Notes under the pieces: generated by a model
What the model saw: the letters and a program-made list of their open reading frames with translations, nothing else
The model's database searches: none
Told to the model about the DNA's origin: nothing
In this document: in pieces, positions 57,546 to 64,000 of the stretch
Numbering within the stretch: position 1 is the first letter of the stretch
How the letters are laid out: every line of letters begins with the position of its first letter
DNA from: Romanomermis culicivorax
Lineage: Eukaryota > Nematoda > Enoplea > Mermithida > Mermithidae
Assembly (NCBI GenBank): GCA_963922205.1
Contig: CAWUHX010000047.1
Coordinates: forward strand, 1,426,001-1,490,000
Length of the DNA: 64,000 nt
Direction: 5' to 3'
Made by a program: the position numbers and the translations under genes

Positions 57546-57548
57546 CGG
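57543..57548 (+). promoter_or_regulatory. UGA-CGG stop between gag and env-pol in the same frame
   Basis: The frame 3 gag reading ends at TGA followed by CGG, and the same frame continues as env-pol. UGA-CGG is one of the leaky stop contexts used by several plant and animal RNA viruses. Whether it is used here depends on the frame 3 gag product being made from unspliced RNA. Confidence 0.4.
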
Positions 57549-60500
57549 GTGAAAAACGTAAATTTTGGTGTAAATTTGCAGACACCGTTTGTAAATATTT
57601 TGTTTGTAATAAATTGGGCCTTCGTGACACTACTGTTCTTAGGACTGAGCTCTGCAACACATGCTACTCAATACCAATTTTGTGGTCTTTCAAGAAGCGG
57701 TCATCCACTTGAGTTACCTCAAAAAGTTGAATGCAAACCACCAAAATCTTCGTGGAGTCCACGACGCATGAATGTTACAGTATATGTACCTATTTCTGAT
57801 CCAATCACGACTAAAGCATGGAAATGTACCTTGCGGAATCGTAAGGTATGCACAAACACTGGTTTTTTCGGATCTAGGGGCATTACTGCGGACGTCATTA
57901 CTACTCAGCACCTCGCGCCTGCGGCGTGTACACTAGCACATCGCACAAAGGTGTTTGGTTTACAAGAGCTCGTGGAAATACGTCCTGGCTTTTATAGCAC
58001 TAACCAAACACTGGAGGTGATGTACTCGTGGTGCTGCAATGACGTCTGCAAGACAGTGACTAACCTTTTCATCGAGGAGGGACAGGTCGCTTCGTGGGAT
58101 GGCACTACAGCTCTAAGTACCTTAGGAGATGTAGGTGGATGCAGTCCCACTGCAGGTCAATGCACTACTCTAGACGGGGTAATTGTTTGGCCTGCCACAA
58201 ACTTTACAGCACAGTGCCATTATCGGCCACAAGGTAATTACACTGCGTCTGTATCAGGGAACCACATCATCATCGATGATTTGCAGGTTGCCCTGAAGAT
58301 CCCGGGAAACTCTCGTGTGTTTCGACTGTGTCCTGACCTCCGGTTGAATACAGTACGAACGGATCAGGGTCTTCTTCTACGCATCCACGGAAGATTTAAT
58401 TTGACCCAGAGGTTATTCAGATTGGCAAAGGACTCCGTCCCTGACCCCGTCAATGCCAAACTGAATTACCTGGCTCAGCAGATCAAAGAGTCAGAAATTA
58501 ACAATTTTCTATTCATGTGGCTAGAGTTGTGTTCTCACGCTCAACGCTACCTTGATCTGACTTGGCAGTTGCTTCGTTTTGACCCTACACTAGGAGCCCG
58601 GGCATTCCTTCAGAGGAATGACCTGACGGCGGAATTTACGGGTGAAGCACTGACAATATGGCCGTGTCAAAAGGTCAACGCCACTTATGTCTATCATTCA
58701 TACCGAGTGGGAGACACCTGTTACAAGTATCTACCCGTACAGGTTGGCGGTACCATTTATTTTGCCACCCCCGGTGGCCCAGATCTCACTAAATTCAGTC
58801 CAAAGGTGCCCTGTGACCACCACTTTACAGGGATTTTCCGAAATCGCTCTGGCTGGTTTACTGAATCTGGCACGGTCCATGTGAGCCATATTCCGCTGGA
58901 GCTGTTCTGGAAACAGCGCTTCAACGTCACTCACTTTGACGCTCCTGCGCTCTTTTATGATCAGTTGGCAATGACCCCTTCTAGTTTTGCTTTCTTTAAA
59001 CAGTACGTTTACAAGACTGAGCAAATTGAAGCGGTCTTGAACCGGTTGGTAAACTATACGGCTGGTTTATCCCTACAACCAGATACCCTGTATCAGGCGG
59101 TTGCAGGGGTAGGGACTGACATCAGAGCCTCACTGGAAGGTGTTGGTCTGGCAGCAAACCATGTGATTACTGGTCAGCAGCACAACCTCATGCAGGGCTT
59201 ACAGTCTCTTTTGAGCGGACCAGTGCAGCTAATCTTTAACACACTTGTTGCCCTGGCAGTACTGGCCGGTACAGGATTCCTCATCTACGTCGGGATCTCC
59301 TATTACCTCAGTTACCGCCTGCGCAAAAGACAGGTTCGGTTTGTTAGCCAATACTCTCCGTTGAACCTCCTCCGGAAAGTTCAGCGTTGGGTAGGTTTTC
59401 ATTACGTACAGAACGATGTGCCAACCCAGTTAGACAGGATCACCCCGTGTTTTGTTGTACTGGTTGACCACAAGGAAACTCCAGCTTTCCTTGATACTGG
59501 TTGTCCACGGACTATCATTAGTCAGCGCCTTCACCAAGCGCTGATCAAAGAAAGTCCGAAGGCGGCGATGGCCTTCCAGCAACATCACGACTTTAATCCA
59601 TTGATGAGTATCAATGGTAAAGCTGTCCATACTCTCCTTTCAGGACCGTATGAGATAATGTTGCCGGGAACCCGTCAGCCACACACACGAGTGGATATAC
59701 ATCTCCATGTGTGTAAAACTACGTCTCCTTTCTGGGCACCGGTCGATCTGATTCTTGGATTGGACTTTATAGAACAATTCCAGAATATTACGTTTGACTA
59801 CCAACAACATGTCTGTCGATTAAACGCGGTAGAACTGCCACTTCTGTTGACAGCAGCTGAGATTGACCAGATCGAACCCTGGTGGGAGAACACACGTTCA
59901 CTGTCAAGGGCTTCCCACAGGCCCGGGTCTCGATCAAGATCAAGGACTTCGTCCCTTTCTCGGCCACACTCGCGAGCTTCCTCCATTGCCTCATCCCGTG
60001 GGTCAACCAGAGGAAGTAGGACCTCTTCTAGACGGGCTAGTGGCCATTCCATGGCCAGGTCAGGGTCAAACTGTCCTCGACCCCCGCCTGGAAATTCTCC
60101 AGTTACACTAGAGAAAGGCTGTTTTCGCGAGCCTAGTGACTCTGATGCACCTGCATCTCCTGTACTAGAGGTGCCACCACTCTCTGATGTTGAGGTTGAA
60201 TCACTAGGAGCTACTCAGAGCTCAGGAGAGAGATCAGATCATGTACTCACTGTTCAGGTCCATCCAACTCCTAAGGCCAATCCGGAAACATCGGTTGGTT
60301 ATGCTCTGGTAGGTTTACTCAGACGCACTGGCTTACCCATACCGAGGCGAACCAATGCGCCAGAGTCGAGCTTTGATGACTCTGTACCTGACCCAGGTCA
60401 TGTAGTATCAGCTTTCTACCCCACTGAAATGAGGACCCCTCATATCAAGGTTCTACTGAACAATTGGGTAGAAGCCAAAGCTCTAATTGATACAGGGGCA

Positions 60501-63500: not shown

Positions 63501-64000
63501 TCTGTGTTCGCTGTCAACATTAGCATGAATGAGTCCACAGGGTATTCACCCTTTGAGCTCATGTATGGTCGGACGCCCATGCTACCTGTTGATGCAGCAC
63601 TCTCATTCAATCCTCCGGCCCATATCATAGATGTTTCTACTTATGATATGGAGGTCAAACGGCATTTTACAAATGCCTTGACCTTGATCCAGAGCAGAAT
63701 TGAGAGATCACAGGCGGCTTATGCTAGGTCCTACGACCGCATGGCACGAGATGTCTCATACAAGGTTGGGGATCAAGTGCTCAAACTGCGCACTACTGGA
63801 AAACGTGGTCTAACGCCCAAATTATTGCCCATTTATGATGGCCCGTACTTTGTCACGAATGTGGCTTATCCTAATGTCACCATTCGACTTGAGGCTGATC
63901 AAGAAGATACTGTGCATGTCAATCAGCTTCGACGCTACGTGTCACCAGCTCAGCCTACAGAAGAAGAGGAGATACCTTCCACTTCCCAGGTCATCGAGAC
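57546..64000 (+). CDS. Element 2 glycoprotein-protease-RT-RNase H-integrase polyprotein (incomplete at window end)
   Basis: Frame 3 is open without a stop for over 2,150 codons. A hydrophobic signal-like segment (about 57,600-57,660) has no ATG before it; a GTAAATTTGCAG acceptor at 57,581 could supply one by splicing, or the frame is reached by read-through. The ectodomain (57,665-59,220) is Cys-rich with NXS/T sites and the block LGARAFLQR / TGEALTIWPC (58,590-58,675). A transmembrane segment lies at 59,235-59,310. Then a first retropepsin-like domain (LDTG 59,491; LILGLDF 59,749), an Arg/Ser-rich linker (59,890-60,060), a second retropepsin (IDTG 60,486; LVLGTNF 60,690), RT (YLDD 61,751), RNase H (LQTDAS about 62,195; ELETLA), integrase with HH-CC zinc finger (62,920-63,050) and D, D, E (VDCMGP, SDRGTDF, NGEVER), and a GPY-type end. 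All catalytic residues inspected are present. Confidence 0.85.

What the first reader, a model, noticed from the sequence alone, without database searches (positions are those of the whole stretch)
57546..64000. Envelope-like glycoprotein placed between gag and protease-RT, in one frame with pol (element 2)
Seen: signal-like segment, Cys-rich ectodomain, one transmembrane segment, then protease, RT, RNase H and integrase, with no stop in over 2,150 codons. Known: in retroviruses and env-bearing retroelements env lies downstream of pol as a separate gene. Inference: the glycoprotein would be a type I membrane protein whose cytosolic tail is the entire Pol, so Pol could be carried to budding sites by the envelope protein, and protease cleavage would free it. 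I know of no described element with this order, though I cannot search.
Basis: partly seen in the sequence, partly recalled or inferred. Interest (0 to 1): 0.93.

Follow-up and report, generated by a model that had tools for sequence, protein, structure and literature searches.

The report
Retroelements with envelope inside the polyprotein
In one unidentified genome, many virus-like jumping elements carry a viral-entry-type glycoprotein between their capsid and enzyme parts, in some families within one long protein, an order that published descriptions of such elements do not give and that would make the protein weave through a membrane.

Summary
Element 2 (LTRs 98.3% identical, 4-bp target duplication) has the order gag, env, PR, RT, RNase H, IN; all 39 further copies fetched keep gag-env-PR. 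Element 1 in the same window has the same order, its Env 44% identical. In element 1's family the order lies in one reading frame of about 2,500 codons: 15 of 18 copies hit by both gag and env probes, and 33 of 36 hit by both env and RT probes, report the same open-frame length. Seven of seven further junctions, in at least six sequence groups, run in frame into the Env signal-like segment. Env resembles class III fusion proteins (gB, Foldseek E 1.4e-13, moderate model; Pfam Monjiviricetes_fusion E 1.5e-16) and is under purifying selection (pN/pS 0.20).

Best reading: Ty3/Gypsy elements with a membrane-threaded Gag-Env-Pol polyprotein (Gag and Pol cytosolic, Env lumenal). Order and frame are shown; topology and processing are inferred. 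The Metaviridae profile puts Env after integrase, so this is a new variant of a known kind. Host unidentified; no RNA seen.

The parts
49696..51127 (+). Element 2, 5' LTR (TG...CA); 3' copy lies beyond the window at equivalent 64550-65981
   Evidence: blastn 98.3% over 1434 columns; ends and CTTG duplication read
51128..51139 (+). Element 2, putative primer binding site (TGG... directly after the LTR)
   Evidence: read from sequence; primer tRNA not identified
51140..55191 (+). Element 2, about 4 kb leader without a large open frame
55192..56853 (+). Element 2, gag first part (Ty3_capsid, then zinc-knuckle-like Cys/His motifs by eye); this copy carries a small private lesion
   Evidence: Pfam E 2.7e-8; third-position variation; lesion
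56854..56939 (+). Element 2, 86-nt intron-like stretch, GT...AG in 40 of 40 rows
56940..57535 (+). Element 2, gag exon 2 in another frame, ending in a TGA kept in 40 of 40 rows; overlaps an open frame that leads to env
   Evidence: pN/pS 0.39 in this frame against 1.53 in the env frame
57549..57665 (+). Element 2, Env signal-like segment (no ATG in frame before it; 28 of 40 rows have an ATG at its end, 57645)
   Evidence: hydropathy 2.2 over 19 aa; pN/pS 0.19
57666..59228 (+). Element 2, Env ectodomain, class III fusion-protein-like
   Evidence: Pfam, model and fold searches, pN/pS 0.20
59229..59285 (+). Element 2, Env transmembrane segment
   Evidence: hydropathy 2.19 over 19 aa
59430..59860 (+). 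Element 2, first protease-like domain (DTG at 59493, ILG at 59751)
   Evidence: weak Pfam E 0.024; DTG in 40 of 40 rows, pN/pS 0.15
60441..60800 (+). Element 2, second protease domain (DTG at 60489)
   Evidence: Pfam gag-asp_proteas E 5.6e-6; DTG in 38 of 38 rows with letters, two rows deleted
61425..62393 (+). Element 2, RT and RNase H
   Evidence: Pfam
62883..63398 (+). Element 2, integrase zinc-binding and core domains; reading frame ends beyond the window at equivalent 64086
   Evidence: Pfam; stop
47525..48403 (-). Element 1, 5' LTR, truncated at its inner end in this copy
   Evidence: 95.6% to the 3' LTR
45967..47520 (-). Element 1, gag (zinc knuckles E 7.8e-8), N-terminus missing in this copy; its stop is not found in the eight other junctions compared
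44050..45960 (-). Element 1, Env (PF24664 E 4.7e-18)
43030..44049 (-). Element 1, protease and start of RT; broken by a stop at its end
41284..42912 (-). Element 1, RT, RNase H and integrase zinc-binding part; integrase core downstream is out of frame in this copy
39567..40461 (-). Element 1, 3' LTR; GCCT duplication at the two outer ends

Best explanation
These are Ty3/Gypsy-type LTR retroelements in which a class III-like fusion glycoprotein gene sits in frame between gag and pro-pol, so that (in element 1's family, and probably others) the genomic RNA encodes one Gag-Env-Pol polyprotein. Shown: gene order, reading frame, repeated occurrence in many copies and several diverged sequence groups, purifying selection on Env, class III-like sequence and fold. 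Inferred: during translation Gag stays in the cytosol; the hydrophobic segment after Gag acts as an internal signal; the ectodomain enters the ER lumen; the C-terminal segment stops transfer; PR, RT, RNase H and integrase are made in the cytosol as the tail of Env. Signal peptidase would free Gag (leaving it membrane-anchored at first) and the element's protease, just behind the Env membrane segment, would free Pol. Gag, Env and Pol would be made in equal amounts at the same membrane, so particles should assemble on secretory membranes with Env and Pol built in. In element 2's family, splicing of an 86-nt intron would end Gag in another frame, giving Gag alone, while Env-Pol comes from the unspliced frame, a frameshift or re-initiation; which of these is not settled.
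Confidence: 0.72

Rival explanations
1. Env is made as a separate protein from a subgenomic mRNA (cis-splicing, or trans-splicing to a leader), and its in-frame position next to gag is incidental.
For: Element 2's family has an intron kept in 40 of 40 rows, an Env frame with no ATG before the signal-like segment, and an acceptor-like CAG at the eleventh codon of the frame (G kept in 34 of 36 rows). Errantiviruses use spliced env RNA (recalled). Stops in the env frame of the overlap zone look neutral.
Against: In element 1's family gag and env (15 of 18) and env and RT (33 of 36) report one frame length in doubly probed copies; chance openness over about 2,500 codons in many copies is not expected. 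Five of seven other junctions have no nearby Met. A spliced env RNA would still give Env fused to Pol.
Confidence: 0.2
2. In element 2's family only, ribosomes reach Env-Pol by +1 frameshifting at the gag end or by re-initiation at a GUG 13 nt after the gag stop (compatible with the best explanation for the other families).
For: The gag exon 2 TGA is kept in 40 of 40 rows, with one row carrying an earlier stop; the GTG at 57549 is invariant in 36 of 36 rows and 7 of the first 8 variable sites after it are third positions of the env frame. Ty3 itself uses +1 frameshifting (recalled).
Against: No known shift motif was recognised by eye; the 13-nt gap shows no phase in its variation; element 1's family needs no such step.
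Confidence: 0.35
3. Assembly chimera or a single rearranged insertion.
For: None found.
Against: Matching LTRs and target duplications at both elements; 39 of 39 copies; other sequence groups.
Confidence: 0.01
4. The glycoprotein is a decaying passenger without function.
For: Many copies are broken (env-pol part in 20 of 40 rows of element 2's family).
Against: pN/pS 0.20 overall and 0.01 among variants shared by three or more of 35 rows (2 nonsynonymous, 51 synonymous), as low as gag and pol; 48 of 71 long frames in element 1's family.
Confidence: 0.04

Closest known systems
Metaviridae (Ty3/Gypsy) with env, e.g. Errantivirus gypsy
   Same: LTRs TG...CA, Ty3-type capsid, PR-RT-RNase H-integrase order, 4-bp duplication
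   Different: [quoted passage not shown] here it lies between gag and protease, and is class III-like, not the baculovirus-derived kind that PMC12440569 (abstract and passages read) names for errantiviruses
Atlas virus of a hookworm (belpaovirus; PMC9094657, passages read)
   Same: One uninterrupted polyprotein that includes Env, without introns
   Different: Order Gag-Pol-Env, BEL/Pao type, class II phlebovirus-like Env at the C-terminus
Anakin (mosquito BEL/Pao with chuvirus glycoprotein; PMC7642597, passages read)
   Same: LTR element that captured a glycoprotein of the Monjiviricetes kind
   Different: BEL/Pao backbone; in the passages seen, env-like proteins of three other BEL/Pao elements are placed downstream of the polyprotein, and no gag-env-pol order is stated
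Tas and Cer-7 (nematode BEL/Pao; named in PMC7642597)
   Same: Viral-type Env in an LTR element; a herpesvirus source is given for one of them (recalled for Tas; the passage's order gives it to Cer-7)
   Different: Env downstream of the polyprotein, by the same passage
Cer1 of C. elegans (PMC10309623, passages read)
   Same: Gag exons spliced to an exon in a unique frame (CERV), as in element 2's exon 2
   Different: No Env (recalled); CERV is needed for export of genomic RNA, which is untested here
Foamy viruses (PMC7828637, passages read)
   Same: Unusual Pol expression; a functional analogy only
   Different: Pol comes from a spliced mRNA, Env from its own spliced RNAs; Env gene downstream of pol (recalled)
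Flavivirus and alphavirus polyproteins (recalled)
   Same: Capsid, internal signal and glycoprotein in one membrane-threaded chain
   Different: Plus-strand RNA viruses without reverse transcription; analogy only

Membership tests
Metaviridae / Ty3-Gypsy | Ty3-type capsid | tested here: met
   PF19259 E 2.7e-8 in element 2; only 0.0039, below the cut-off, in element 1
Metaviridae / Ty3-Gypsy | PR-RT-RNase H-integrase order in pol | tested here: met
Metaviridae / Ty3-Gypsy | LTRs with TG...CA ends and short target duplication | tested here: met
Metaviridae / Ty3-Gypsy | RT placed among Ty3/Gypsy clades by a tree | not tested
Metaviridae / Ty3-Gypsy | Env, where present, downstream of integrase (PMC7879559) | tested here: not met
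   Env lies between gag and protease in both elements and in 39 of 39 further copies of element 2
Errantivirus (gypsy type) | Baculovirus-derived Env downstream of pol | tested here: not met
   Env position; sequence and fold point to class III proteins
Class III viral fusion glycoprotein | Fold like gB or rhabdovirus G | tested here: met
   [not shown]
Class III viral fusion glycoprotein | Two fusion loops and fusion activity | not tested
   region not examined; no assay
Monjiviricetes fusion glycoprotein (PF24664) | Pfam match above the curated cut-off | tested here: met
   60.0 and 64.9 bits against 27, over 149 and 172 residues
Belpaoviridae with Env (Atlas, Anakin, Tas) | Env at the C-terminal side of Pol | tested here: not met
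Belpaoviridae with Env (Atlas, Anakin, Tas) | BEL/Pao integrase end (DUF5641; link to BEL/Pao recalled) | tested here: inconclusive
   not listed for the element 2 integrase piece; weak match in relative P0003, E 0.015

The most novel reading that the evidence does not exclude
A diverse clade of Ty3/Gypsy elements has adopted the coding plan of a flavivirus-like polyprotein: one chain, Gag-Env-Pol, threaded through the membrane, in which the capsid is followed by an internal signal, a class III fusogen in the lumen, and the whole polymerase as cytosolic tail. Such elements would make Gag, Env and Pol in fixed equal amounts at one membrane and could be infectious retroviruses of a new build.
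Probability: 0.55. Interest if true: 0.87.

Novelty: new variant of a known kind. Interest (0 to 1): 0.8.

Why it matters
LTR elements with Env are described with Env behind integrase (PMC7879559). An Env inside the Gag-Pol chain, kept under selection in at least one family and present in at least two diverged families of one genome, with in-frame junctions in several more sequence groups, would mean that Env is made at a fixed ratio with Gag and Pol and that Pol can be carried to membranes by Env; and a rule used to recognise and classify such elements would fail. The same Env family also appears behind a BEL/Pao-type integrase end in P0003, which suggests exchange of env between retroelement classes.

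Tried and rejected
First structure model from three sequences was poor (pLDDT 41.5) and was not used. A scan of viral contigs with Env found nothing. PDB sequence search with one Env gave nothing useful; the profile gave gB only at E 0.035. A leader comparison for element 2 copies was not possible. A test for nematode spliced-leader RNA (RF00198), meant to identify the host, did not complete. Pfam on ten of 31 listed open frames in the first 39.5 kb gave one partial helicase match and no host identity. Whether the long frame of unspliced element 2 RNA is essential was tested by stop counts and left open. An assembly chimera was rejected (see rivals).

Literature: ten searches in the open-licence PubMed Central library listed no paper whose title or shown abstract start describes a gag-env-pol order; only 10 to 20 papers per search were listed (one). 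Repbase, GyDB, preprint servers and subscription journals were not searched, so priority is not established. PMC10084718 (passages read) reports no clear evidence of Gypsy capture of jingchuviral glycoproteins. PMC5408684 (passages read) treats the env-like ORF3 as an ORF downstream of pol.

Full report
What was checked. The window holds two LTR retroelements. Element 2 (plus strand) has a 5' LTR at 49696-51127 and a 3' LTR beyond the window at equivalent 64550-65981; they are 98.3% identical, begin TG and end CA, and are flanked by the same four bases CTTG (read). Between them come a 4-kb leader, gag from 55192, and a frame open from 57549 to a TAA at equivalent 64086, 2179 codons. Pfam places a Monjiviricetes fusion glycoprotein first in that frame (E 1.5e-16), then protease, RT, RNase H and integrase. 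Element 1 (minus strand, 48403 to 39567) has the same order; its copy is degenerate, with the inner end of the 5' LTR and the gag N-terminus missing, a stop between gag and env, a stop in RT and frame loss in integrase. Its LTRs are 95.6% identical, with a GCCT duplication.

The order is not one rearrangement. A 1-kb env probe gave 40 scored places (of 1069 candidates) in the same 359-Mb genome: the window's own and 39 others at 98-99%. I fetched 6.4-kb pieces for the 39 others: all 39 align along gag, env and the first protease, at 88-98% identity overall. Four (L015, L017, L026, L043) diverge or are deleted at one end and were left out of the variation counts; L028 was also left out of those. 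Between elements 1 and 2, Env is 44%, gag 38% (166 residues), second protease 40% and RT 62% identical, so the two families probably separated long ago with the order already in place. A protein from another source, P0001, has the same Env (35%) followed in frame by a protease-like stretch (Pfam E 0.1) and what looks like the start of RT (31.5% over 92 residues, pairwise only).

Element 1's family has one reading frame. With the env protein as probe, 71 places were scored (of 4242 candidates); 48 lie in open frames of 2450 aa or more. With gag, 83 places (of 3917), 27 such; with RT, 80 places (of 9905), 50 such. Eighteen copies were found by both gag and env probes, 51 or 54 nt apart, and 15 of them report the same frame length for both; 36 were found by both env and RT probes and 33 agree. 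The exceptions include the window's own copy. Eight junctions were read letter by letter: none has a stop between gag and env, but all eight were picked from long-frame copies. The lists are capped by the tool, so numbers of copies are lower bounds.

Other sequence groups. A probe with P0003 found 61 env places in this genome, at 32-39% identity, 30 of them in frames of 2100 aa or more; these overlap the two families above in part. Seven junctions were read: each is open in frame for 81-97 codons before the hydrophobic segment. By pairwise identity (17-38%, except one pair at 60%) they make at least six groups. In five of seven there is no Met within 25 residues before the segment. Six of the seven were chosen with frames over 2,500 aa, and gag itself was not tested there.

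Element 2's family in detail. Where variation falls among codon positions shows which frame is read (35 rows): gag up to 56853; an intron-like stretch 56854-56939 whose GT and AG are kept in 40 of 40 rows; gag exon 2 in another frame, with pN/pS 0.39 against 1.53 when read in the env frame; and env-pol from about 57549. The window copy has a small insertion in gag and a stop just before env, neither seen in the 39 others. In 11 of 40 copies a single frame runs from the start of the piece in gag to its end in pol; in 20 of 40 the env-pol part is open. Whether the unspliced frame is needed is unresolved: stops in it across the overlap zone number 13 against 13.25 expected without selection, while gag, env and PR-RT together show 26 against 60.9; but six of the 13 fall in a cluster of four CGA codons, and without them the difference is not significant (p 0.20). 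So Env-Pol in this family may come from unspliced RNA, a frameshift near the gag end, re-initiation at a GTG 13 nt further on that is invariant in 36 of 36 rows, or another RNA. An ATG at the end of the signal-like segment in 28 of 40 rows could start an Env without signal; I count this against the polyprotein in this family.

Where it may come from. P0003 begins with about 40 residues that resemble the end of BEL/Pao integrases (DUF5641, E 0.015, below the curated cut-off; that this domain marks BEL/Pao is recalled) and continues in frame into the same Env family. So this Env family is probably found both behind a BEL/Pao integrase and inside Ty3/Gypsy elements. The direction of transfer is not known.

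How it most likely works. One chain carries Gag, an internal signal, the ectodomain, a membrane segment and Pol. Gag and Pol face the cytosol, Env the lumen. Cellular signal peptidase and the element's own protease, which lies just behind the membrane segment (two protease domains in element 2), would cut it. This gives equal amounts of Gag, Env and Pol at one membrane. It resembles the capsid-signal-glycoprotein plan of flaviviruses (recalled) in a reverse-transcribing element. Atlas virus (PMC9094657, passages) shows that a retroelement polyprotein can include Env, but at its end; the Metaviridae profile (PMC7879559, passages) states that Env lies downstream of integrase. Gene order and frame are shown here; every step of membrane insertion, cleavage and assembly is inference.

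Limits. The host species is not known; no RNA or protein was seen; the literature search covers open-licence papers only; the clade of the RT was not tested by a tree; env after integrase was not sought as such in other copies.

Noticed in passing
window 59493 and 60489 (+): Element 2 has two protease-like domains in tandem, each with DTG, 21.7% identical; one was found in element 1. DTG is kept in 40 of 40 and 38 of 38 rows.
   Followed up: partly
window 56854-57535 (+): Intron-like stretch plus an exon in a second frame at the end of gag, reminiscent of the CERV exon of Cer1; its product may not be plain Gag.
   Followed up: partly
window 51128-55191 (+): Long leader (4 kb) between the LTR and gag, without a large open frame.
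   Followed up: no
window 49609-49696: Element 2 is inserted at the end of a tandem array of a 22-45 bp unit that contains CTTG, the same four bases as its target duplication.
   Followed up: no
window 36610-38541: Two tandem arrays with units of 300 and 326 bp next to element 1.
   Followed up: no
window 32260-32805 (+): Open frame with a partial AAA_11 helicase match (E 6.9e-12), probably one exon of a larger gene.
   Followed up: no
P0003 (protein collection): Same Env family directly after a BEL/Pao-type integrase end.
   Followed up: partly
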